In this document: piece by piece, positions 1-10,279 of the stretch
How positions within the stretch are numbered: position 1 is the first letter of the stretch
How the letters are laid out: each line of letters begins with the position of its first letter
Notes under the pieces: generated by a model
What the model saw: only the letters and a program-made list of their open reading frames with translations
Databases searched by the model: none
What the model was told of the DNA's origin: nothing
Program-made: the position numbers and the translations under genes
Assembly: GCA_030043175.1 (NCBI GenBank)
Contig: JASHYD010001383.1
Location: 1-10,333, forward strand
Direction: 5' to 3'
DNA: 10,333 nt
From: Xanthobacteraceae bacterium
GTDB taxonomy: Bacteria > Pseudomonadota > Alphaproteobacteria > Rhizobiales > Xanthobacteraceae

Positions 1-1569
1 TGCGTCCCGCTCCACTAGCTCAAGGAAACCCTGGACGATGGCTTCTTCGAGCGTATTGCCGGCTGCACAGCCATTGGAATCCGCCTGATATCCGGCCCCA
101 TAGAAAAAATACAAAAGCCCGGTCGGAAGGTATTTGAAGCATTCGTCGCGCAGAGACCAGACCGGCGACCACTCTATTTTGGCCGACGGATCGAACGGGG
201 GTGGGACCATGTGCGAATGGCCCGTATCGAGCGCGCTCGTCTGGCGTCGCCCATATTGGGCGTCGCTGAAGAGGAGGACGTCGTTCGGATGGAGGACCTC
301 GCCCGGCAGAAAATCCGTGAAGCGCCGCGTCACTCGGATTTCATCGCCCTGGAAAATCCCGGAATAACGTTCGATCGCCTCCATGAGCGCGCTGGCTTCG
401 CCTTGCTCGGCCGTACTGCCCTTGCCGAAGCTCCCGCCCCTCAGTCCTGCCCTCAACTGGTTGACCGTACGGGCAGGCGCAGAAAAATTGTGCGCAGCAA
501 AATAATTAGTGTTCAGCGGCAAGTCGGCCTCGATCCGTTCCAGCCGTGAAACCACGCCAGTGAGCGGGCTCACGTGCTTTCGGAACCGCGCGACGGTTGC
601 CCGCGACGAAACGGTGCGGTATCCGCCGCTCGTCATGACCAGCTTGCCGCTGGCGTCAAGCTCGACCGGCGTCGGCGCACGGCGCGGATCGCGCAATTTT
701 TTGCGTCCGCATGCCGGACATTGCGGACGGGCCGCCACGTAATGCTTTGCAATCGTGGCGCCCGACAGATCGAGGCTGATAATGTGATCGTTCAATTCCG
801 TACGGAACCCGGTGGCGACCGCTTTGGCGATCTCTACGGCAGCAAGCTGGATGCCGGTCTGTCCGAGCGGATGTCGAGCCAGAGGCGATACCGCGACGCA
901 GCGCGCATCCCCGCGGTCGAGCAACGCTCGGACCTCCCGGTTCCGCCTCATCCGGTCGGCAAGGCAGGTCCAGCAGGCGCCCCTGCCCGGGCTGAACACG
1001 GGTCCCACCAGAGGAAAAATGCCAGAGGGCTGAACCAGCAGCCACGGCGTTTGTTTGGACAAATGTTGCTGGTTCAAGTCGGCCAGCCATGTTTCAAGAT
1101 AGTCGTTCACCATCGTGATGGTCAGGGCAGGAGAGCGTTCCACAACGCGAACGCCCAGCTTGCTCAAGGCGGCGCCGAGTTGCTTTTCACCCGGCACGTC
1201 GATCGATTGAATGCACACACGACATTTCTGCAGATTTTGCTCCGCGTTTTCTGGCGCCAGGCCGAGGCTTGCCCAATAAGCTGCCATGGTGCCGTCGGAG
1301 CCGCGTGATACGGGGACGACGTAACGACGGTCGAACAGTCGCTTCAGCGCTTCCTGAATCTTCTCCGACGGGAAATCCCGCTCTAGCTCGCGAACGAGCT
1401 CCCGACAGCTCTGCCCCCCTTTTCCAATTGCCGCCGCAAGTGCGCAGTAGAGTTGGCCGTGGAGAAAAAACTTCCTGTCCTCGGAATAGAGGCACACGAC
1501 GTCGGGTGGCAGCAGGTAGACGGTGAAATTGGGAGAGAACTGCGGAACGGCTTTGCTGTTGGGCAGCAT
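1..1569 (-). CDS. Fused TOMM cyclodehydratase (leader-binding C domain + YcaO D domain), 3' end beyond window
   Basis: This enzyme would use ATP to cyclise Cys and Ser/Thr of a ribosomal peptide into thiazolines and oxazolines. The frame is open without a stop for 523 residues and leaves the window at its C-terminal side. Residues 1-110 look like a leader-binding (RRE/E1-like) region. Two Cys pairs, C199/C202 (CWTC) and C284/C287 (CPAC), fit the structural zinc site of SagC/ThiF-like C proteins. The YcaO part follows. It shows the ATP-site motif GEASALMEAIERYSG (390-404) and the second motif GNTLEEAIVQGFLELVERDA (504-523). The start ATG at 1569 has GGGAG seven bases upstream; an upstream in-frame stop at 1624 limits the alternatives. 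It lies 125 bases after the Cys/Ser-rich precursor, on the same strand. The architecture matches the SagC/SagD fusion seen in many TOMM clusters. The C-terminus and any dehydrogenase or transporter lie outside the window. Confidence 0.93.
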   Translation of the reverse strand, partial: MLPNSKAVPQFSPNFTVYLLPPDVVCLYSEDRKFFLHGQLYCALAAAIGKGGQSCRELVRELERDFPSEKIQEALKRLFDRRYVVPVSRGSDGTMAAYWASLGLAPENAEQNLQKCRVCIQSIDVPGEKQLGAALSKLGVRVVERSPALTITMVNDYLETWLADLNQQHLSKQTPWLLVQPSGIFPLVGPVFSPGRGACWTCLADRMRRNREVRALLDRGDARCVAVSPLARHPLGQTGIQLAAVEIAKAVATGFRTELNDHIISLDLSGATIAKHYVAARPQCPACGRKKLRDPRRAPTPVELDASGKLVMTSGGYRTVSSRATVARFRKHVSPLTGVVSRLERIEADLPLNTNYFAAHNFSAPARTVNQLRAGLRGGSFGKGSTAEQGEASALMEAIERYSGIFQGDEIRVTRRFTDFLPGEVLHPNDVLLFSDAQYGRRQTSALDTGHSHMVPPPFDPSAKIEWSPVWSLRDECFKYLPTGLLYFFYGAGYQADSNGCAAGNTLEEAIVQGFLELVERDA

Positions 1570-1694
1570 CAGGCTGCTCCCGTGGTTGCCTGTCACAGCG
1601 ATAGTGTCCGCGAATCCGGACCGCTACGGCATTGCGATGTCACACCAGCCGCGCACGACTTCCGCCTGCGTGGTCGGACAGCGCTTGCGGTCTG

Positions 1695-2171
1695 TCACCA
1701 GCAGCAGCAGCACGAACACGAACAGGAACAGGAACAGGAACAGGAGCACGAGCACGAGCACGACCAGCCGCAGGAGCACGAGCAGGAGCACGAGCAGGAG
1801 CACGAGCACGACCAGCCGCCGGACCGGCAACTAAAACCGCAACCGCAACCGCGGCAGCCGCACCCCCGACATCCCCGGCAACCGCCGCAACCGCCGCAAC
1901 CTCCGGCAAGCCGCACGCCCGCGTTGCCTAGTTTGGGATTATCCGTATCGAAAACATAGAACGTCGCCAAACTGACGTCGGAGATTTCCTCTTCGCCGAG
2001 GATAATTTCGTGATTTGGCGCGTTCTTCACCACCGGCCGAATATCTACTGCCGCGCCGTTAGTCGTCGCGGCTGCGCTCCCCGCCAGCGCCAGCGAAAAC
2101 CCGGCAGCTCCCAACACTGGCACGGTTTTCTTGGCAGCCCTCCGCTTCGCCGCTTGTTTCGCACGTAGCAT
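1695..2171 (-). CDS. TOMM (thiazole/oxazole-modified microcin) precursor peptide with Cys/Ser-polymer core
   Basis: A 158-residue substrate peptide for the adjacent cyclodehydratase. Residues 1-16 are very basic, 17-36 are hydrophobic and end in Ala-rich sequence like a signal peptide, and 55-80 form an acidic leader containing EEISDVSLATFYVFDTDN. LAGG (88-91) sits directly before the first core cysteine, like a double-glycine leader cleavage site. The core (92-158) has 28 Cys and 18 Ser. A Gly/Cys/Arg part (92-119) is followed by W plus seven Ser-Cys pairs, then GW plus nine Ser-Cys pairs, and finally CCCW. ATG at 2171 has GAGGAG six bases upstream. Dense alternation of cyclisable residues beside a YcaO gene identifies it as a RiPP precursor. 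The family resembles short Bradyrhizobium-type proteins I remember only loosely. The final activity (toxin, signal, metal binder) cannot be read from the sequence. Confidence 0.9.
   Translation of the reverse strand: MLRAKQAAKRRAAKKTVPVLGAAGFSLALAGSAAATTNGAAVDIRPVVKNAPNHEIILGEEEISDVSLATFYVFDTDNPKLGNAGVRLAGGCGGCGGCRGCRGCGCRGCGCGFSCRSGGWSCSCSCSCSCSCSCGWSCSCSCSCSCSCSCSCSCCCCW
1713..1814 (-). repeat. Trp-(Ser-Cys)n tandem repeat in the precursor core, 48-bp period
   Basis: The two Trp codons (1812-1814 and 1764-1766) are exactly 48 bases, or 16 codons, apart. Each opens a run of Ser-Cys codon pairs: seven in the first, nine in the second. The first run alternates TCGTGC and TCCTGC. The second contains three TCGTGC followed by four TCCTGT. 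The matching flanks around both Trp codons suggest duplication of a 16-residue unit. The uniform hexamer runs suggest later expansion by replication slippage, always in frame. Confidence 0.85.
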
Positions 2172-2261
2172 AGTGAGCTCCTCAATGCTCGAAGAGCATC
2201 CCTCGTACGCCCTGCAAGACGCGCTGTAAGCCGCCTTCCTTACTTATTCACCTTATTTATA

Positions 2262-2281
2262 AATTAATTCATGAATTAATT
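2262..2281. promoter_or_regulatory. 20-bp perfect palindrome at the TOMM promoter start site (candidate operator)
   Basis: AATTAATTCATGAATTAATT is a perfect inverted repeat. It overlaps the proposed -10 hexamer and the expected transcription start of the precursor gene, which is a usual place for a repressor operator. No regulator gene is adjacent within the window. AT-rich sequence makes chance palindromes commoner, so function is inferred. Confidence 0.4.
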
Positions 2282-2307
2282 AAATTCAAAAATAAATAAT
2301 ATGACAA
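2279..2307 (-). promoter_or_regulatory. Sigma-70-type promoter for the TOMM precursor
   Basis: On the minus strand TTGTCA (2302-2307) is followed after exactly 17 bases by TTTAAT (2279-2284). Each hexamer matches the housekeeping consensus at five of six positions. It lies in the most AT-rich stretch of the window and would start transcription near 2272, giving a leader of about 100 bases before the precursor start. This is a sequence match only. Confidence 0.55.
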
Positions 2308-2344
2308 ATATCACTGCAAGCCGACCAACAGTATGGCAGTTTTT

Positions 2345-2450
2345 TGTTGACGAGTCGATTATGGCGCAAACGCACCAAGCGATGCCTCATTCATTCCTGC
2401 ACGATCCGATTAATATTCCGCCGAAAGTGGCCACTCTCGATTATCCGCCT
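2345..2450. mobile_element. Possible IS21-family end remnant
   Basis: The stretch begins TGTTGAC and carries three CGATTA-containing units (near 2356, 2406 and 2438), two of them leading into CCGCC. It also contains AAAGTGGCCACTCTC. Ends of IS21-type elements in rhizobia often carry several internal repeats around a GTGGCCACTTT-like core, and this resembles one such end. No istA or istB reading frame is present, so at most a fragment remains. The similarity is from memory. Confidence 0.3.
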
Positions 2451-2683
2451 GCAAAAAGGTTTCATCGCGCTTGAGGCTCCATGACGGCCGGAGCATGGCC
2501 GAGTGAACCTCTTTGCTGCTCGTCGCTGCGCGCCCGGACGCTCCTCCCGCGCATCAAACTCAAACCACGCCCGATGCCGACGGTGGGCGATTAATCGTCT
2601 TCACTTGACCGCGCCCTCAGCGCGCGGCGCGCACGCGAACCTGGTCGCGCACACCAGCTCTTGCTGCAGCAATAATCGTCCGG
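2451..2683. other. Non-coding stretch with no recognised gene
   Basis: I see no convincing reading frame here. The 63-codon plus-strand frame starting at 2503 has no ribosome binding site and a low-complexity Arg/Ala/Ser composition. TTGCTGCAGCAA (2661-2672) is a perfect 12-bp palindrome without a T-run, so I do not call a terminator. Confidence 0.5.
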
Positions 2684-2939
2684 CTATGACTTAGCTTTTA
2701 GCTTACCGACCTCGTCAAGCGCGTTGCCGGCAGCCTCGAAAGCTTCACTCGATCGCCACAATCGCCTCAGGCCCGAACCGCCCCAGGTTGCACGAATGAA
2801 TGAACTGACAGAGCTGCTCGCCCATGACCGCAGCCGAGCACGCCCAAATTGAAGACTGGAAATGCGTCGGGTCAAGTTTGATTGAGGCTAGGAGAGCCAG
2901 GTGCAATTCATCACTTTTAAATCTCGCCTCCAGCATCAT
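2684..2939 (-). pseudogene. Frameshifted small hypothetical protein gene
   Basis: The first part, from ATG 2939, reads like a compact helical protein (SDELHLALLASIKLDPTHFQ, later SIWACSAAVMGEQLCQFIHS and RFGPEAIVAIE) and hits a stop at 2745. Shifting by one base at that point continues smoothly as EAFEAAGNALDEVGKLKAKS to a stop at 2684. The two pieces together would make a protein of about 84 residues. A single-base insertion near 2745 explains the break, although a sequencing error is possible. The start has no good ribosome binding site. The style resembles short Rhizobiales hypothetical proteins, but I cannot name a family or function. Confidence 0.5.
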
Positions 2940-3472
2940 CGTTGGATAGCAGCTTCACCGCGTCGCGCCCGACACAATAAGAGACGCGGCACGCATTACC
3001 TTATGCGCGCGCTGGACGGCTGCAGTAAGAGAGTAAGCCGACACGAGTCTTGCGAAGGCTCTGCAATCCCTACGCTGCCGGTCGCGCTCTGCACGCCGTT
3101 GATGAAGACCGCAAGGGAATGCCTGATGGCGACCGCCCGCGGCTGCCGCATGTGGTCGTCCCGCACGCGACCCGATTGCCTTCGCGATGGGGGACTGAGG
3201 TGGTGTTTTTAAAGTCGCTGACGCCACGCGGAGGGGCGAGGGGAAGCGAAAGCCAACGACAGGCCGATCGCACCGAGAAACAGCGTCAGCCGCGCCCTAA
3301 CAGAGCGACGGCGCCGATCCGTTGTCGGTCGCCTTCTCGACGCGCTCAGCAATGATGTAAGCAGCGTGTCCGCCTTGCAACACTCGGCAGCGTCCGCATC
3401 CAGTCAGCGTGGCCTACAACTTGGGCGCAGCGCCAAGAGGACAATTGTTCGTGTCGCCGGCCACTTTTCAGC
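2940..3472. other. Decayed intergenic stretch, no intact gene
   Basis: No frame here has a good start site and coherent composition. Two fragments on the minus strand look like gene remnants. One at 3209-3301 has an Arg-rich start, then LTLFLGAIGLSLAFASP, which is very like a secretion signal, and stops after 31 codons with no start codon. One at 3297-3375 ends AERVEKATDNGSAPSLC. They overlap in different frames, so at most one was real. The rest looks like unselected sequence. Confidence 0.4.
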
Positions 3473-4027
3473 TTACGGAATGCCTGAACGCACCATTGGC
3501 ACCTGTGACGGCCGCGCCACGGGGTTGCGCGGTGTGGCAGGGGTGGGCCGTTGCGTAGGCATAGAGATCTTGTCAAGGATGTTGTGCTCGACCGCCTCCA
3601 GCTTGCTGCTGAAGTCGCGGGTTATCGACTCGTGGCTGGCCGACAATTGGTCGACGCTGCGTCTCATCTGCTCTTGATTAGCGTCAAGATTAGCCGCGAT
3701 CCGGTCAATGCCTTGCCGCATGGCGTCGAGATCGAGCGATATCGCGTTGAACTGCTGCTGATAGGGAGCGCGGGCGGTTGGCGCGATCATCTCTCTGGCT
3801 GCGCCACCGTAGGACTGCCACGCCAACGTGGTAGCGACGCCAATGAAATAGGCGATCAGGTAGGACGCCAAGGCGAGCGGGGCGAGCCTGCCGACCCACG
3901 ACCATCTTTCCGGAAGCCGGTCGCGATTCGGGTTGGGCGGACGACTAGCAGGCGCCTCAGCTGATGGCTTGACGAGCAGAGAGGCTGCAAAGAACTCAGG
4001 CGGCGTAGGGCTCTGCGTGGTATTCAT
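3473..4027 (-). CDS. Single-span membrane protein with coiled-coil region, function unknown
   Basis: A 184-residue protein. Residues 1-45 are Pro-rich and presumably cytoplasmic. Residues 48-70 form one membrane helix (LAPLALASYLIAYFIGVATT). Residues 90-155 are polar heptad-like helix containing DAMRQGIDRIAANLDANQEQ, probably a coiled coil in the periplasm. The C-terminus (156-184) is Pro/Arg-rich. I chose ATG 4027 because GAGG lies five bases upstream; the longer form starting with TTG at 4081 lacks a comparable site. It resembles a family of short membrane proteins found in many copies in Bradyrhizobium-type genomes, where RIAANxxxNQEQM-like segments recur. No enzymatic motif is visible. 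It stands alone, with no operon partner. Confidence 0.8.
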   Translation of the reverse strand: MNTTQSPTPPEFFAASLLVKPSAEAPASRPPNPNRDRLPERWSWVGRLAPLALASYLIAYFIGVATTLAWQSYGGAAREMIAPTARAPYQQQFNAISLDLDAMRQGIDRIAANLDANQEQMRRSVDQLSASHESITRDFSSKLEAVEHNILDKISMPTQRPTPATPRNPVARPSQVPMVRSGIP

Positions 4028-4464
4028 TTGCGCCTCGCTCTCCGGGTCCCGAGCCGGCCCCCCTATGAGACCCCCAGCCAACGCCCGTGACTTTCATCGG
4101 AATGGTAGCCGCTCACAGCGGGATGTCGCGGACTGCGCCGGGGTCAGGGATAGGCCGATCGCCCGGAGAGATTCATCCATGACGTAAGAAGCGACTGTGC
4201 TGGGCCACTGTCCGTCGCCTTCTCGACGAACTCCGCAAAGAATCCATTTCTCGTCCCCATAATTCTTCATGGTTCGCGGTGCAAGGGGGATGCCCACGCG
4301 TGCTGTACGCGGCAGCGGCGGCTCGAAGCCGAGCGAAGCCTGCCGACCCCATGCCGATTCAGAACTTTTAACTTGCTCCTTCAACGTGCCTCAATCAGAG
4401 TCGGTGTGAACAATGGGCGCCGAAATTGATTCACTTGAAATTCCACGTTTGGCGAGGTGGCCGC
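4028..4464. other. Intergenic stretch with a short gene-like remnant
   Basis: On the minus strand a frame ending at 4144 reads NGFFAEFVEKATDSGPAQSL and then LTSWMNLSGRSAYP, without a start codon in frame. It resembles the remnant at 3297-3375 over about 20 residues. The long minus frame at 4094-4384 starts with TTG, lacks a clear ribosome binding site and has an atypical composition, so I leave it out. Nothing else is recognised. Confidence 0.35.
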
Positions 4465-4493
4465 TTGGCCGGTTCGCTGCGAATAGGTATTTT
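4465..4493 (+). promoter_or_regulatory. Weak candidate promoter for the DUF4242 gene
   Basis: TTGGCC (4465-4470) and TATTTT (4488-4493) are separated by 17 bases and lie about 40 bases before the start codon of the DUF4242 gene. Each matches the housekeeping consensus at four of six positions, so this is only a candidate. Confidence 0.25.
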
Positions 4494-4531
4494 ATCCTTG
4501 TCGACGAAATCCCTTTGTCAAAGGAGAACTC

Positions 4532-4813
4532 ATGACCTTGCGCCGCTTCATTATCGAAAGAGCAATTCCCGAAGTCGGCACGTTCGCCAGAGAGCAACTT
4601 CGGGACGCAGCAAAAAAATCGAATGAGGTGCTTCACCAGCTTGGTCCAGACATTCAGTGGGTTGAAAGTTACGTCGCCGACGACAAGACGTTTTGTGTTT
4701 ACCTTGCCAAAGATGAGGGGATCATTCGCAAGCACGCGGAGATCAGCGGCTTTCCGGCGACCAAAATCACCGAAGTAAAGAAAATGATTGATCCCACAAC
4801 GGCCGCGACATAG
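4532..4813 (+). CDS. DUF4242 domain protein (SCO4226-like)
   Basis: A 93-residue soluble protein that matches the DUF4242 pattern across its whole length. MTLRRFIIERAIPEVG opens the first strand, AAKKSNEVLHQLGPDIQWVE forms helix 1 and the next strand, SYVADDKTFCVYLAKDEGII is the most conserved block, and KHAEISGFPATKITEV closes the fold. Proteins of this family adopt a ferredoxin-like fold, and the Streptomyces member SCO4226 binds nickel. Whether this one binds metal is unknown; H68 is a possible ligand. AGGAGA lies six bases before the ATG, a strong ribosome binding site. It is a stand-alone gene, and its length is usual for the family. Confidence 0.9.
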   Translation: MTLRRFIIERAIPEVGTFAREQLRDAAKKSNEVLHQLGPDIQWVESYVADDKTFCVYLAKDEGIIRKHAEISGFPATKITEVKKMIDPTTAAT

Positions 4814-5208
4814 GGCGAAATTGCACGGCGCAAATTTGCCTGGAAGCTTAAAAATTGCTGACCGTGGCGACGTACCAGTGATGGCTTGGCGATTGTGCGT
4901 GAAGGTCTCTCCGGCGGGCGACGCGACCAGCACCGATGGCGGTGAGGACGTGACGATGCTGCTCCAGCTTTTTCGCTACAGCGAACCTCGGTCGTCACTC
5001 GAATAGACCCGCTCGCCGGTCAATCCATGACCTGCTGAACATCGTCCATGGTATTCGGCACCGCGGGCATCGAGCGAGTGCCCCTCGGCGAATTGCGCGG
5101 CACCCGCTGTCACGAGCATGACCGGTTAATGTCAGCGGTGGAAGCCACCGCATCGGCCCCGGGGCAATGAAAATCGCGCGTCTTCCGGCCGGGTTCGCAG
5201 GTTTCTAC
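4814..5208. other. Non-coding stretch between convergent genes
   Basis: No frame here is convincing. It separates the DUF4242 gene on the plus strand from the 66-residue gene on the minus strand. The only structure I see is the stem-loop at 5135-5151, listed separately, and a short GCAAATTTGC palindrome near 4831. Confidence 0.5.
5135..5151 (-). terminator. Stem-loop downstream of the 66-residue gene, possible terminator
   Basis: GCGGTGG and CCACCGC pair perfectly over seven bases around a three-base loop. It lies about 58 bases past the stop of the minus-strand gene. No T-run follows, so it may be only a 3'-end hairpin rather than a full intrinsic terminator. Confidence 0.3.
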
Positions 5209-5409
5209 TTAACTGTCCTTTTGCGTATCTTCCTCTTGGTTGCCGCGACCCTCCAAACCGCGCTCAGGCCGCGCATCGACGTAATCGGCAAGGACCATAT
5301 AAATGCTGGCAAGGCCGAGCAGTTCAACTCGCTCAGCCGTGCCGCGCACCTCATCGGCGGCACGCGTGCATTCCATCGCCTTCTTTCGGTACGTTTCGAG
5401 ATTCGACAT
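5209..5409 (-). CDS. Small hypothetical protein, probable general-stress gene
   Basis: A 66-residue, charged, helical protein beginning MSNLETYRKKAMECTRAADE, with a middle segment (VELLGLASIYMVLADYVDAR) that looks like an amphipathic helix. It has no membrane segment or signal peptide. GGGGGA lies eight bases before the ATG. I know similar short proteins from Bradyrhizobium-type genomes, where they are uncharacterised. A perfect sigma-EcfG promoter sits about 35 bases upstream, so expression is probably tied to the PhyR-NepR-EcfG general stress response. The function itself is unknown. A longer overlapping frame from 5519 has no supporting start site and is rejected. Confidence 0.8.
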   Translation of the reverse strand: MSNLETYRKKAMECTRAADEVRGTAERVELLGLASIYMVLADYVDARPERGLEGRGNQEEDTQKDS

Positions 5410-5444
5410 TTCGTGTATCCCCCTGAAGCACTAAGCCGGATTGC

Positions 5445-5469
5445 AACGCCGAACTCTGGGTCTGGTTCC
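5445..5469 (-). promoter_or_regulatory. Sigma-EcfG (general stress response) promoter
   Basis: On the minus strand GGAAC (5465-5469) is followed by exactly 16 bases and then CGTT (5445-5448). This is the established -35/-10 pattern of alphaproteobacterial EcfG sigma factors. Transcription would begin near 5438, about 30 bases before the 66-residue gene, a natural distance. I looked at the other GGAAC occurrences I noticed in the window and none had a correctly spaced CGTT. Confidence 0.7.
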
Positions 5470-5625
5470 CGACGTAACCGAGGCCACCGCACCATCATGG
5501 CGGGCCCCGCGGCCCTCACTTTTCGTTCCCTCTATGTTCCGCAAGGATAGGGGCGGTTGAAGGACCTTTACCGCGGGAACGTGCGCGGAACCTCGACTGG
5601 ACTTTCGAACCGCCGGAAAAAAGTC

Positions 5626-6387
5626 ATGGCGGACTGAGCCAAATCGGCGGGGCGGAATTCAATCGACTGCCGCTTTTCGCAGGGCTCTTTTTTACGAACG
5701 GCATTGCTGCAAGAGCCATTGCGACAGACGTCGGATGGCTGAGCACCGTGATCGGCCTGTTCGATGTCAGTGTCATTGTGCTCGCCCGCCTGCGCATCCG
5801 GTCTTTGGTTGATGACCGGCCACGCGGAGCAATCGGCGGTCCCCACCGACCTCGTTATCGGCTCGGTTGCGCTCGTGCTGATCACTCTTCCCACTGGAGG
5901 GCCGAGCTGGATCGCGCAGGCGGACTGGCTCTGTATTCTGCCGTTCACGGACGCAGACCTGCCGACGCGACGCGGGGCGCTGGCTCACTATTGTTAGCGG
6001 CGACTGTACCCCTCTTTTGGAGCCGCTTGTTGTTCCAGTATTTTTGCAAACTTCATCCTGGAAATTGATGCATTATTCGTTGGGTGGATGCTTGGTACGG
6101 AGCGGACGAGCGGACGCGCAATATCCTCGCTTCGCAAATCGTAGCGGATACCTCGTGATATTCCCGGGGTGTTCATCGTTAGCGAATATGTCACTGGCCT
6201 TGCTCTGTTGGATTACGGTAAGCGAGTTCGCGGGGGATCGGCGAACCTAAGCGATCTGTAATGGTGCCTGCTGGCTTGCGGCTCACTGCTTGCCAGCCCG
6301 TCCATCCGTCAGGTTGGCGATGCTGTCACGAATACTCTGGTTCTGATTGCCACGCTGGGGTGGAGCTTCTGGGGGTGCAACACATGA
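5626..6387 (+). pseudogene. Exosortase/archaeosortase-family membrane protease, multiply frameshifted
   Basis: Exosortases cleave sorting-signal proteins at the membrane using Cys, Arg and His. Fragments of one multi-span membrane protein appear in order but in different frames: GLFFTNGIAARAIATDVGWL (from 5667), ASGLWLMTGHAEQSAVPTDL, LLLAATVPLFWSRLLFQYF, EIDALFVGWMLGTERT, then SGYLVIFPGCSSLANMSLAL with the likely catalytic Cys at 6170-6172, and finally WCLLACGSLLA joined to GDAVTNTLVLIATLGWSFW. At least four frame changes are needed, plus an early stop. Between GSLLA and GDAVTN only a few residues remain where the family normally has the helix carrying the conserved Arg and His, so a deletion is likely. 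The proposed start at 5626 is a guess. The family assignment rests on the Cys motif and the membrane pattern. Confidence 0.6.
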
Positions 6388-6844
6388 GCTCTCCCGCGCT
6401 TAAGTGGCTGATTGCGGCCTTGCTCCCGCCAACTCGAGCATGGAAAGAACGCTCACCCGCGGAGAATGTTATCGCATTCCTGATGCGGCGCGGATTCGAT
6501 GCAGCTGTAGATGAACGGACGAATTTTCGCAGAATCCTGGCGCTCAATAGCTCCTGCCGGATGCGCCTGTTGATAGCATCTAATGATGGAGCGGATCGGG
6601 ACATGATGCGCAGCCTTGCTGCCCTCGCCGAGGCCTGATTTTCGTTTATCAGGGCAAGGTCTACCAAGAACAGCCGATCCTATTGATTGTATCGGCTGAA
6701 TTGTGGGCGCGAGCGCCCGGCAAATTAGGATTGACGGATCGTCACCTCCCCGTTCTTGCGGTGGTGGGGCAAAATCGAGGCGATGTAGAGCGCCTGTTCT
6801 GGGACGACTTAAGTAGGGGCAGCCCCACGGAGATGGTCCGTTGA
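6384..6844 (+). pseudogene. Frameshifted gene of unknown function, translationally coupled to the exosortase remnant
   Basis: The ATG at 6384 overlaps the exosortase stop (ATGA), as in coupled operon genes. The first frame gives 84 residues, including ENVIAFLMRRGFDAAVDERT and CRMRLLIASNDGADRDMMRS, and stops at 6638. A shift of one base near 6632 continues as GLIFVYQGKVYQEQPILLIV and ends with QNRGDVERLFWDDLSRGSP at a stop at 6842. The intact protein would have been about 153 soluble residues. I do not recognise the family. Its coupling suggests it served the exosortase pathway, but that is inference. Confidence 0.5.
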
Positions 6845-7225
6845 ACGCATCCTACGATTTTCTATCGCCAGCGGCACCGATTGGCAGCGGGTCGACCTGA
6901 TTCCTTCTCATCTCGCTCCGCGGGCCCCATCAACAGCGAGGTGTTATTTTGGCTGCCGGGGTCCTATCGGCGACGCCGCTCCGGACTCCCTGCGCAGCGA
7001 TGACAGGGACAACGTAGTGTTGTGCTTTGCTAAACCGGCAGACACAAATGCCTTTGCAGAGCGCTTTGGGGGGTTGCCTTCGCCCCAGAGATAATCCCGA
7101 AAACAAGCGGGCCGAGCTGAAGGCCGCACTTTGATTGTCCCTGAGTGGATCGAATCAACGGCTATCGGCGTTTTTCTGTTGTGGATTGTTGTGCACTTGC
7201 GCCGCGCTGGACAGACAGGAACTCA
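6845..7225 (+). other. Intergenic stretch with a small gene remnant
   Basis: A plus-strand frame at about 6996-7094 reads SDDRDNVVLCFAKPADTNAF and then AERFGG before a TAA stop. Its composition is protein-like and it resembles the C-terminus of short rhizobial hypothetical proteins, but no start codon or ribosome binding site precedes it. The rest shows no coding signal. The promoter of the following membrane protein should lie here, but I could not pick one with confidence. Confidence 0.35.
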
Positions 7226-7648
7226 ATGCCAATGAGAGACGATGGGCTACTCAAACGCATGCCTGGCTTCTTCTACATCCTCATTCTTTTCATAGCCGGG
7301 AGGCTCATCTTCGCTGACCCACGGGCCACCTTGTTCCAATGGGGTAAGTACCACCTCTCTTGGGTTGAGGTCCTTATGGTCGGCGCAGCGATGATGGCGA
7401 TGGCTGAACAGTTGAAAGTGTCTCATCCTGGAATTGACAACACTATTGAGGCCATTTTGATGGGTGCAATGGCCGGTGTGCAGGTTCTGCTTTTCGCTCT
7501 TGGGGCGGCAGGCGTGAGGCACCTCGCTATCTTTAACAATACTGAGTTTCTCATGCTTACTTTGATCAGCATTACTCAGGCTATTGTTGCGACTTTGATC
7601 AACGCTAGGACGCTACGGCGGACGATCGGGGTGAGCGGCAGCAGCTAA
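7226..7648 (+). CDS. Four-span inner membrane protein, function unknown
   Basis: A 140-residue protein with four predicted membrane helices at about 14-30 (FFYILILFIAGRLIF), 46-61 (WVEVLMVGAAMMAMAE), 75-97 (AILMGAMAGVQVLLFALG) and 105-125 (FLMLTLISITQAIVATL). Both ends are short and charged, and the loop KVSHPGIDNT lies between helices 2 and 3. I start at ATG 7226 because AGGA lies five bases upstream; the longer frame from 7145 would add 27 residues of poor composition. It is intact and surrounded by decayed sequence, so it may be the only working gene between 5470 and 8770. I recognise the style of an uncharacterised Bradyrhizobium-type protein but no named family. Confidence 0.75.
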   Translation: MPMRDDGLLKRMPGFFYILILFIAGRLIFADPRATLFQWGKYHLSWVEVLMVGAAMMAMAEQLKVSHPGIDNTIEAILMGAMAGVQVLLFALGAAGVRHLAIFNNTEFLMLTLISITQAIVATLINARTLRRTIGVSGSS

Positions 7649-8768
7649 TCCAAGTGGCGACAAGATCGCGAGCCCGCTCGCCGCCGCAAGGCCGCTGGGC
7701 GGGCTCGCTAGCGCCTGCATGGCCGCGCATCGACCAGCGCTTCCAAGGCCAGCATGAAAAAGTTCTCATCCATCCGCTGCGGCTGCGCCTGGATGAGCTA
7801 TTGCGGTGTCGCGTGTCATGTTCGGCACCACGCCTCCGGCTCTCGACAAGAACTTCGGCAGTCGCAGCTTTGCCACAAGAACTCCGCCACCGTGGTCGCC
7901 AACGCCCGCGTGACGCCGCAGATGATCGATCGCATGATCCCCTCTATCACGAAGACTAGCACGTCGTGGTCGTCCGGATCGGATTGCAGGCCGTCGGCCG
8001 CTCGCCGCGGCTGCTACTACCGCTGCGCCTCGATCGTGTGAACCTCCATGGCCTGGTGCGCCTTGAACACGACGAACTTCTGCTTCGCTTGCACCTCTGT
8101 CGTCTCGTGCTTCGCAACTGCTCGCACAACACATCACCGCACAGTGGAATTGCCGACGTCGCCGCAGCTGCGGTGCTTCTGACAATAGGCCATGCGCCGC
8201 GCCTGCCGCAGTCAGCCATCTCCCGAAATGACGACGCTGCCGCACACTCGTGGTAATGCTCCCACACCTGTTTCATTTCGCATCCTGACAACGAGCAGGC
8301 AAAGAGCGCCGCAAATCCTGGGGGAAGTCGCGTTTCGCATAGTGTGTTCCCTCTGCCTCGATGGCCAATTCGGGTACCAATGCCCTGCAATCGCTAATCC
8401 TGATCGTCAGATCGGACTAAGACTCGGTGCCAGTAGCAAGCTGGGCTGGTGTGCTCAGTAATAATCCCCTCGCTTGCCCTTCGAACCGCCCCTTACCTCC
8501 GCGAACTGATACGGCCCCCTTGAATGCGGTCCTTGCACCTTCACTCCGAGCCTCCGCTGATCAATACGTTACTCTGGTCCATCGTGAATCACACGGCTCG
8601 CCCGAGCCGGTGATCGGCGCGCGAGACTGTGCACCTCCGCCTCGCCTCTTGGGAACGCCGGGGTCGGATTGGCATATACCATCAGGAGGAGTTGCATGAA
8701 GAGAGGGATTCTACGGCGCTGCGATCGCACTTGAACCGTTGGCAACACGGGAGTGTTGAGGCCGGAAG
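7649..8768. other. Long decayed stretch without an intact gene
   Basis: Several overlapping frames of 70-160 codons occur on both strands, but they are Arg/Ala-rich GC artefacts with no start sites. One minus-strand frame between about 8020 and 8200 has a more natural composition (ETTEVQAKQKFVVFKAHQAM) but is broken by stops on both sides, so it is at best a remnant. A strong AGGAGG (8690-8695 region) precedes ATG 8696, yet that frame encodes only 12 residues. Nothing else is recognised. Confidence 0.45.
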
Positions 8769-8903
8769 ATGCCCAAACACAAACGTCGGGCCGCAGACAC
8801 GCATCTTGGTAGTGCGACTGGTGCCGTGGGTGCTATGCGAACAGTCAATGTGAGAACATCAAGATTTGCTGATCGTGAAAAGGCGGAGAGACGACGATCA
8901 TGA
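8769..8903 (+). CDS. Doubtful 44-residue basic protein
   Basis: The frame starts MPKHKRRAADTHLGSATGAV and ends FADREKAERRRS; it is strongly basic and too short for a clear domain. A GAGG lies seven bases before the ATG. Its stop overlaps the ATG of the next frame (ATGA at 8900-8903), which is mild support for both being real. I do not recognise it. The surroundings are decayed, so it may be chance. Confidence 0.35.
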   Translation: MPKHKRRAADTHLGSATGAVGAMRTVNVRTSRFADREKAERRRS

Positions 8904-9193
8904 CAACGCTACTTTTGGTCACGCACACCGTGACGACATCTGGCAAGACCACTCGCCGGGCACGGTGCGAGGGCAGCCCATCCGTGTACACGGTCAAGCG
9001 CACAGTTTCGGATAGCGCCCATATGCTCGTGCCGGAAGACGCACGGCGCACGCCGAAGTGCGCCCGCGAGCGCTTGAAAATGTCTAGCGCGGTCGAGCCT
9101 GTTCATTGTCCGGATGGTACGGCGTCCACAAGTCCGCGATGGGGACTGCGCGCTTTCCTCCGTAAAGACTACGATCCGGACAAACTGGCCTGA
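8900..9193 (+). CDS. Doubtful 97-residue hypothetical protein
   Basis: The frame begins MTTLLLVTHTVTTSGKTTRR and ends GLRAFLRKDYDPDKLA, with a fairly natural C-terminus. Its start overlaps the previous frame by four bases. It has no recognisable domain. An equally long frame lies on the opposite strand over the same bases, so strand choice is uncertain. I favour plus because of the overlap. Confidence 0.3.
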   Translation: MTTLLLVTHTVTTSGKTTRRARCEGSPSVYTVKRTVSDSAHMLVPEDARRTPKCARERLKMSSAVEPVHCPDGTASTSPRWGLRAFLRKDYDPDKLA

Positions 9194-9237
9194 CGGGGAG
9201 CTCCGGCCCAAGGGAACCGGCGGTCGCGTAATATAAG

Positions 9238-9522
9238 CTAGCGCTTCTTCGGACGATATTCGCCCAAATCGATCTCATAGCCGCGGTCTTTCGCTGCCGC
9301 GCGATGCAGGGTGGCCCGCTGCTTTCGCGAAAGCCTCAGTGTCTCGGCGACGAGATTGACCCACTCTGGCGAGGCGCTCTTGCGCCCCGTTAGCGTCTGG
9401 TTCGTGTAGGCGTGCGATTTGCCGACCGCTTCGGCAAGATCAGCTTGTGACATTCGACGCTCGGTCAACAGATGGCTGACCGCAACGCCGAATGTGCTTT
9501 TCGTCGATGAGCGGCGCGACAT
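9238..9522 (-). CDS. XRE-type helix-turn-helix DNA-binding protein
   Basis: A 94-residue protein with an XRE/Cro-like domain at about 13-65: VAVSHLLTERRMSQADLAEA, then VGKSHAYTNQTLTGRKSASP, which is the turn and recognition helix, followed by WVNLVAETLRLS. The tail (66-94) is basic. Such proteins usually bind operator DNA as dimers. The start ATG 9522 lies four bases after the stop of the vWA gene (9527), so the two are co-transcribed and probably translationally coupled; a weak GAAG precedes it. A longer frame from 9660 would overlap the vWA gene and is rejected. Autoregulation through the palindromes upstream of the vWA gene is plausible but inferred. Confidence 0.85.
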   Translation of the reverse strand: MSRRSSTKSTFGVAVSHLLTERRMSQADLAEAVGKSHAYTNQTLTGRKSASPEWVNLVAETLRLSRKQRATLHRAAAKDRGYEIDLGEYRPKKR

Positions 9523-9526
9523 CGCT

Positions 9527-10279
9527 TCACAGCGAAAAATCGTCCACGGCCTTGTGCCTGGGCTGCGGCGGAATCGGCCGCGACTGCGGCTTGGGCACCT
9601 GCGAGCCTTGCTGGCCGAATACGCGTTGGAAATGCGCATCGCCCGAGGCAGCGCGTGCACTCATCGAAAGACCCGTGTCTCTCGAACGGCCTGCAGCGTA
9701 GTCTGCGATTGACTCGCCCATCGCCGCATAGGACGCGCGCACATGCTGCGGCGATCGCCCGCTGGACAGCGTTGACATCGCCGCCACGCCCATACGCGCT
9801 CCCGTATCGTAGGCATCAATGCCGGTGCCCAAAAAGTTGAATTGCCAGCCATCGGCGGTCTTTTCCTTGATCAGGGCATTGAGCTCGTCCCACGTATGCT
9901 CGGTCGACGCGTTCTCGTGCCCGTCGGTCTGAATGCACACTACGACCTTGGGATTGCTGCCGTTGAGCGACTTTTCCACCGCCTTGATCGTCTTGTAGGC
10001 AGCGTCGATCAGAGGGGTGCTGGCGCCCGGCTGATAGCTTTCCATGGTCAGCTCGGCAACCTTCGACACCGGAACCGCCACACAGACCTTTTCGATGCGG
10101 CGGCTGTCGAACTTGATCAGCGTGAAGTCGATCGGCACGGCCTCCGCCTTGAGCGAACCGAGATAGGAATTGAACCCGCCAATGGTGTCGTCCTTGATCG
10201 ACTCCATCGAGCCGGTTTCATCGAGTAGAAACGTCACCAGCGTGCATTGATCGGTTCCAGCCTTCTTCGACTTAGACAT
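9527..10279 (-). CDS. von Willebrand factor A (vWA) domain protein
   Basis: A 250-residue soluble protein. The vWA fold covers about residues 12-170. The metal-site (MIDAS) residues are visible: DETGSM (20-25, a D-x-T-G-S variant of DxSxS), T88 in PGASTPL, and D119 in QTDGHEN. Such domains bind a divalent metal and a protein partner. Residues 195-250 are low-complexity and Pro/Gln-rich, ending KAVDDFSL. No signal peptide or membrane segment is seen, so it is cytoplasmic. AGGAGG six bases before ATG 10279 is an ideal ribosome binding site. An XRE regulator follows directly. The partner is unknown; no MoxR-type ATPase or Ter gene lies in the window. Confidence 0.9.
   Translation of the reverse strand: MSKSKKAGTDQCTLVTFLLDETGSMESIKDDTIGGFNSYLGSLKAEAVPIDFTLIKFDSRRIEKVCVAVPVSKVAELTMESYQPGASTPLIDAAYKTIKAVEKSLNGSNPKVVVCIQTDGHENASTEHTWDELNALIKEKTADGWQFNFLGTGIDAYDTGARMGVAAMSTLSSGRSPQHVRASYAAMGESIADYAAGRSRDTGLSMSARAASGDAHFQRVFGQQGSQVPKPQSRPIPPQPRHKAVDDFSL

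What the first reader, a model, noticed from the sequence alone, without database searches (positions are those of the whole stretch)
1..2310. RiPP (TOMM) cluster with an extreme Ser-Cys polymer precursor
A fused C/D YcaO cyclodehydratase follows a precursor whose core holds 28 Cys and 18 Ser, mostly as alternating Ser-Cys pairs with Trp punctuation. If fully cyclised it would be a ribbon of alternating oxazole and thiazole far longer than in well-known azole peptides. I do not recognise the precursor as any characterised product.
Basis: partly seen in the sequence, partly recalled or inferred. Interest (0 to 1): 0.9.

Follow-up and report, generated by a model that had tools for sequence, protein, structure and literature searches.

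The report
Azole-peptide precursor with Ser-Cys polymer
This bacterial DNA encodes a small protein whose tail is almost pure alternating serine and cysteine, next to the first part of an enzyme of the kind that turns such residues into rings; it is a rare, extreme version of a widespread but uncharacterised Bradyrhizobium-type peptide family.

Summary
On the minus strand a 158-residue precursor (1695-2171) is followed after 98 bases by a fused cyclodehydratase (1-1596, cut by the window edge). The 69-residue core has 28 Cys, 18 Ser, 3 Trp and uninterrupted Ser/Cys stretches of 14 and 21. It is a thiazole/oxazole (TOMM) cluster: the enzyme resembles LynD/TruD, and 23 of 25 large relative loci carry precursor, cyclodehydratase and SagB dehydrogenase in that order. 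The leader family is large (over 4,000 hits) and Bradyrhizobium-type; a B. japonicum precursor with Cys-Arg-Gly repeats was mentioned in print in 2009. Relatives' cores are Gly-Cys with little Ser. Only P0001, of 157 listed homologues, shares the Ser-Cys polymer, in another arrangement: a rare core variant of a known kind. I infer export by the general pathway, described as rare among RiPPs. Whether Ser is cyclised is unknown; the nearly Ser-free family cores argue for mostly thiazoles with Ser spacers. Function (bacteriocin or metal binding) is untested.

The parts
1695..2171 (-). TOMM precursor gene, 158 aa
   Evidence: ATG with GAGGAG upstream
2178..2183 (-). Shine-Dalgarno-like GAGGAG
   Evidence: sequence
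2067..2171 (-). residues 1-35: signal-peptide-like segment (charge +7 before an uncharged stretch from residue 17, A-A-A at 33-35)
   Evidence: inference, no predictor run
1938..2012 (-). residues 54-78: conserved leader block HEIILGEEEISDVSLATFYVFDTDN, presumed enzyme-binding part
   Evidence: alignment; role inferred
1821..1904 (-). residues 90-117: Gly-Cys core typical of the family
1770..1811 (-). residues 121-134: (Ser-Cys)x7, 14 residues, after GGW
1701..1763 (-). residues 137-157: (Ser-Cys)x9 then CCC, 21 residues, after GW
1705..1811 (.). DNA tandem array behind the polymer (period 6, 17.2 copies, at 1709-1811; period 30 over 1705-1811)
1..1596 (-). fused C/D cyclodehydratase, first 532 aa, runs off the left edge
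1318..1542 (-). residues 19-93: winged-helix domain of the cyclodehydratase (RRE-like by recall)
   Evidence: PF21084, 25.8 bits against cut-off 24.1
550..1050 (-). residues 183-349: leader-binding C domain, with CWTC and CPAC pairs
   Evidence: TIGR03882
1..426 (-). residues 391-532: N-terminal part of the YcaO domain
   Evidence: PF02624

Best explanation
The locus is a Bradyrhizobium-type TOMM cluster. The fused cyclodehydratase binds the conserved leader block (GEEEISDVSLATFYVFD) through its winged-helix/C domain and uses ATP to cyclise core Cys residues to thiazolines. A SagB-type dehydrogenase, expected just beyond the left edge, oxidises them to thiazoles. In this lineage hexanucleotide repeat expansion has replaced most of the usual Gly-Cys core by Ser-Cys modules punctuated by (G)GW. 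Most likely all or most Cys, and only some Ser, are cyclised. The signal-peptide-like N-terminus then lets the general export pathway take the modified peptide out, with signal peptidase cutting after A-x-A, which would explain why no dedicated transporter or peptidase was found recurring beside the cluster. The product most likely acts outside the cytoplasm, as a narrow-spectrum bacteriocin or an envelope metal-binding peptide. Shown: genes, domains, gene order in relatives, core variation. Inferred: ring formation, export, function.
For: Cyclodehydratase domains; match to LynD 4v1t over residues 17-531, E 3.9e-97, and to TruD and MusD. Cyclodehydratase and SagB in the same 23 of 25 large loci, downstream of the precursor on its strand (SagB by TIGR03605 in L003, 178.7 bits against 78.4). 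YcaO looks constrained: 77, 63 and 221 differences at codon positions 1, 2 and 3 over 531 codons against L048, and 96, 76, 228 over 532 against L047. Conserved leader block with invariant G59, E61, E62, D65, V66, L68, T70, F71, D75 in 26 aligned precursors. A second Ser-Cys allele, P0001. Uncharged 15-mer in 158 of 159 precursors, with A-x-A after it in 154 and a basic start as well in 153; the 15-mer is absent from 5 of 5 presumed cytosolic controls and present in 2 of 3 presumed exported ones.
Against: No chemistry was seen. The signal-peptide-like stretch is less hydrophobic (mean 1.74) than in the two exported controls that had it (2.18 and 2.22), and the third exported control failed my test; the region is Ala-rich, the controls are few, some with uncertain start codons, and no signal predictor was available. 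The window's SagB gene and YcaO C-terminus are beyond the edge; the window's surroundings match none of the relatives' neighbours tested. The polymer sits on a DNA tandem array, so slippage alone might have made it.
Confidence: 0.65

Rival explanations
1. Full polyazole ribbon: every Ser and Cys is cyclised, giving contiguous alternating oxazole/thiazole blocks of 14 and 21 rings.
For: Perfect alternation, with all variation among the TCS-TGY units synonymous; a second allele keeps alternation. Cytolysin TOMM cores with 10 or more contiguous potentially heterocyclised residues are on record (PMC4603692 passage), and phazolicin carries three thiazoles and five oxazoles (PMC6783444 passage).
Against: Family cores almost lack Ser before Cys (38 of 1962 Cys counted in 156 members), so there is little sign of selection for Ser cyclisation. 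LynD and TruD, the nearest solved relatives, are Cys-selective (recalled, from no call). P0001 breaks the runs with GGW every few residues.
Confidence: 0.22
2. Neutral slippage: a hexamer repeat expanded in the core, and the extra Ser-Cys units are not functional or not modified.
For: TRF finds a period-6 array of 17.2 copies. P0001 differs from the window in the core mainly by in-frame insertions. Rare: P0001 alone among 157 listed homologues.
Against: Two alleles keep the reading frame, Trp punctuation and a similar Cys total (28 and 29). The P0001 leader is nearly identical and YcaO looks constrained.
Confidence: 0.25
3. Bufferin-like role: a Cys-rich RiPP exported by a signal peptide to bind metal in the envelope, rather than a bacteriocin.
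For: Signal-peptide-like N-terminus; bufferins combine a Sec signal peptide, Cys-derived heterocycles and copper binding (PMC12452194 abstract and passages). No transporter or peptidase gene was found recurring next to the cluster.
Against: Different enzyme (YcaO, not MNIO). No metal-related gene among the neighbours that I identified (not every neighbour was identified).
Confidence: 0.25

Closest known systems
Bradyrhizobium putative thiazole bacteriocins (Lee et al. 2008 as cited by Haft 2009, PMC2674419)
   Same: Genus, Cys-rich repeat core; I infer that it is this family from the described Cys-Arg-Gly repeats, which resemble the (R/G)GC cores of the relatives here
   Different: Core here is a Ser-Cys polymer; the C-terminal CCxSWGxCRxC of most relatives is replaced by CCCCW. 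Lee et al. itself was not held
Heterocycloanthracin (Haft 2009)
   Same: Low-complexity Cys core with in-frame repeat indels between strains; precursor far from the enzymes
   Different: Unit is Cys-Xaa-Xaa there, Ser-Cys here; leader not compared by a tool
Cyanobactin heterocyclases LynD/TruD
   Same: Fused cyclodehydratase, best solved relatives of the enzyme
   Different: No PatA/PatG-type protease among the neighbours of relatives that I identified
Bufferins (MNIO RiPPs)
   Same: Signal-peptide-like N-terminus and Cys-rich core
   Different: Different modifying enzyme and chemistry

Membership tests
TOMM / linear azol(in)e-containing peptide | YcaO (D) cyclodehydratase | tested here: met
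   PF02624 1.6e-42 (146.4 bits, cut-off 25.7) over profile positions 2-141. TIGR03604 104.8 bits, below its cut-off of 219.25; the window copy is cut by the edge, and the full-length relative in L003 scores 216.5, also just below
TOMM / linear azol(in)e-containing peptide | C/leader-binding domain | tested here: met
   TIGR03882 148.6 bits against cut-off 36.9
TOMM / linear azol(in)e-containing peptide | Precursor with conserved leader and Cys/Ser/Thr-rich core beside the enzyme | tested here: met
TOMM / linear azol(in)e-containing peptide | SagB-type dehydrogenase (often present) | tested here: inconclusive
   beyond the window edge; present in 23 of 25 large relative loci
TOMM / linear azol(in)e-containing peptide | Azole or azoline rings in the product | not testable with these tools
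   needs mass spectrometry
Cyanobactin | PatA/PatG-type proteases in the cluster | tested here: inconclusive
   none among the neighbours of relatives that were identified; the window's own left flank is not held, and no search for these proteases was run
Bufferin | MNIO (DUF692) enzyme | tested here: not met
   the adjacent modifying enzyme is YcaO; the window's left flank is not held
Sec-exported RiPP precursor | N-terminal signal peptide | tested here: inconclusive
   basic start, uncharged 15-mer and A-x-A in 153 of 159; no predictor or export test

The most novel reading that the evidence does not exclude
A YcaO-modified peptide family exported by a general signal peptide, in which this lineage makes contiguous 14- and 21-ring alternating oxazole/thiazole ribbons, longer than any azole run known to me.
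Probability: 0.13. Interest if true: 0.85.

Novelty: new variant of a known kind. Interest (0 to 1): 0.52.

Why it matters
An enzyme that handles 35 Ser/Cys residues in two near-adjacent blocks would test how far azole formation runs along contiguous residues. [quoted passage not shown]

Tried and rejected
Uninformative: the homologue search restricted to residues 110-158 scored none of 5330 candidates; it missed even P0001, so it had no power on this low-complexity tail. The plasmid search with the precursor found nothing. The Ser-Cys DNA pattern hit 2 of 391 family genomes, but in neither does the repeat lie in a precursor: the stretches are short frames without the leader (L044, L045; no leader match in L044-L046). 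That pattern covers TCC/TCG codons only, and the reversed control pattern also hit 6 genomes of the list. The viral collection gave one leader relative (L067) with no match to the window's cyclodehydratase.

Rejected: wrong frame or antisense reading (leader homology and P0001 support the frame); a twin-arginine signal as the family rule (RR before the uncharged stretch in 51 precursors). Weak and not relied on: synonymous-only variation among Ser-Cys units, since units of a tandem array are not independent. The consensus promoter scan found none, and the 3 terminator-like sites (1.0 expected) lie inside the precursor gene. The 159 precursors (120 listed proteins, the window, 38 short loci) are not independent: they were found by homology, and some short loci (L006, L008, L010, L012, L014) repeat the places of L001-L005.

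Corrected on checking: my first count of A-x-A after the uncharged stretch (158) came from a script slip that counted a label; one search gives 154, and 153 with a basic start. Results against my reading: L003 has a Peptidase_C13 gene and two solute-binding-protein genes within about 5 kb, but each is found in only 1 of 25 large loci; L047 has an ABC transporter gene and L053 a solute-binding protein downstream. I scanned one downstream ORF in each of 10 of the 23 loci, so a transporter elsewhere is not excluded.

Full report
What is there. On the minus strand a 158-aa ORF (1695-2171) precedes a 532-aa ORF (1-1596) that runs off the left edge, with 98 bases between them. The small ORF has GAGGAG before its ATG. 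Two uninterrupted Ser/Cys stretches of 14 and 21 residues are separated by Gly-Trp; the longest perfect SC repeat is 18 residues, against at most 12 in 20,000 shuffles of the same residues. The DNA beneath is a hexamer array.

The enzyme. The large ORF has a winged-helix domain (PF21084), the TOMM leader-binding C domain (TIGR03882, 148.6 bits against a cut-off of 36.9) and the first 141 positions of YcaO. By sequence its best solved relatives are LynD, TruD and MusD. It has no internal stop; it is 75.5% identical to L048 and differs from it at 77, 63 and 221 first, second and third codon positions (531 codons), so it looks constrained at the protein level.

The family. The precursor has 4603 hits at E 0.001 or better among 7991 candidates scored; 120 are listed. 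Neither Pfam nor NCBIfam (window protein only) gave a convincing family for it. All five loci found in named genomes are Bradyrhizobium. In the genus of G001, 105 of 242 genomes sampled have a match, some several (8 in G054, in which mostly 16 candidates per genome were scored). Of 25 large relative loci, the same 23 have the cyclodehydratase and the SagB-type gene downstream on the precursor's strand; L002 and L005 have neither. Upstream a glyoxalase-like gene (23 loci by clustering, 24 by tblastn), an OpgC gene (21) and an NDUS4 gene (19) recur, which suggests a conserved chromosomal place; none of these matches the window. In the families recurring in 9 or more loci that I identified there is no peptidase or transporter; not every recurring ORF family was annotated. 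The downstream ORFs scanned in 10 loci are diverse: an epimerase, a cytochrome c, an ABC transporter, an Hsp70-like protein, an amidohydrolase, two carbamoyltransferases, a solute-binding protein, a glyoxalase-domain protein and an IS66 transposase. Of 38 short loci, 30 have the cyclodehydratase within about 1.5 kb and 8 do not, some of these cut by contig ends, so some precursors may be orphans.

The unusual core. In 156 other precursors (L013 dropped because the core boundary was not recognised) Cys is mostly preceded by Gly (1377 of 1962 Cys counted) and rarely by Ser (38 of 1962); in the window 17 of 28 and in P0001 20 of 29 follow Ser. Two full-length searches listed 157 distinct proteins; only P0001 has a Ser-Cys polymer, the next having 4 Ser-Cys pairs. 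The lists are capped at 120 of some 4,300 to 4,600 hits each, so distant Ser-Cys members could be unlisted; with the two-sequence profile P0001 (one of the two) scores 359 bits and the next 143. P0001 is 95% identical where aligned, has 29 Cys, but arranges the modules differently, with GGW after short (SC)n blocks. So the core is a rare variant, changing by in-frame units. The usual C-terminal CCxSWGxCRxC is replaced by CCCCW (window) or CCCSW (P0001).

The leader. In 26 aligned precursors A33 and A35 are invariant, as are P18, G21 and A23, and positions of the block GEEE..DV.L.TF. A-x-A begins 29-42 residues before the DVSLATF-type motif in 155 of 159, and the other 4 have a small residue, x, Ala. 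An uncharged 15-mer is found in 158 of 159 (not in P0039), followed by A-x-A in 154, with a basic start as well in 153. Of eight controls from relative loci, 2 of 3 presumed exported proteins and 0 of 5 presumed cytosolic ones have such a 15-mer. The hydrophobicity is modest (1.74 against 2.18 and 2.22). I read this as a probable signal peptide ahead of the enzyme-binding block. [quoted passage not shown]

What is known. [quoted passage not shown] japonicum precursor among the putative thiazole bacteriocins of Lee et al. (that paper is not held; that it is this family is my inference). Cox 2015 (PMC4603692, passages) has no occurrence of Bradyrhizobium (listing) and reports cytolysin cores with 10 or more contiguous potentially heterocyclised residues, so contiguity itself is not new. 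Searches of the held open-access library showed me, in their listings and in the passages I opened, no characterised product of this family; subscription papers are not covered.

Verdict. A genuine TOMM precursor and cyclodehydratase by sequence, a new core variant of a known but uncharacterised family. Ring formation, ring formation on Ser above all, export and function remain inference.

Noticed in passing
L008, L009, L011, L013, L014, L015, L028, L042; genome G054 (8 matches): Precursors with no cyclodehydratase within about 1.5 kb, or several per genome, suggesting that one enzyme set may serve several precursors; some loci are cut by contig ends.
   Followed up: partly
P0071, P0073, P0097, P0104, P0120: A precursor subfamily whose short Cys core is followed by a long CWTG..YTS-type, Pro-rich tail instead of CCxSWGxCRxC.
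   Followed up: no
window 9238-10279, minus: An HTH protein gene (PF13560) next to a protein with a DETGSM, VWA-like motif (motif by recall); neither has a match in the fetched loci.
   Followed up: partly
window 2310-9230: Few recognisable genes for a 7-kb stretch (one SCO4226-like ORF, 4532-4813, PF14026; only some ORFs were scanned); the relatives' glyoxalase, OpgC and NDUS4 genes are not in the window.
   Followed up: partly
L067 (viral collection contig), 3622-3846: A leader relative (52% identity) on a contig filed as viral, with no match to the window's cyclodehydratase in its 6155 bases.
   Followed up: partly
P0003, P0006, P0090: Leaders among the nearest to the window after P0001 (68-79% identity) come with truncated or Cys-poor tails, perhaps frameshifts or assembly errors in the low-complexity core.
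   Followed up: no
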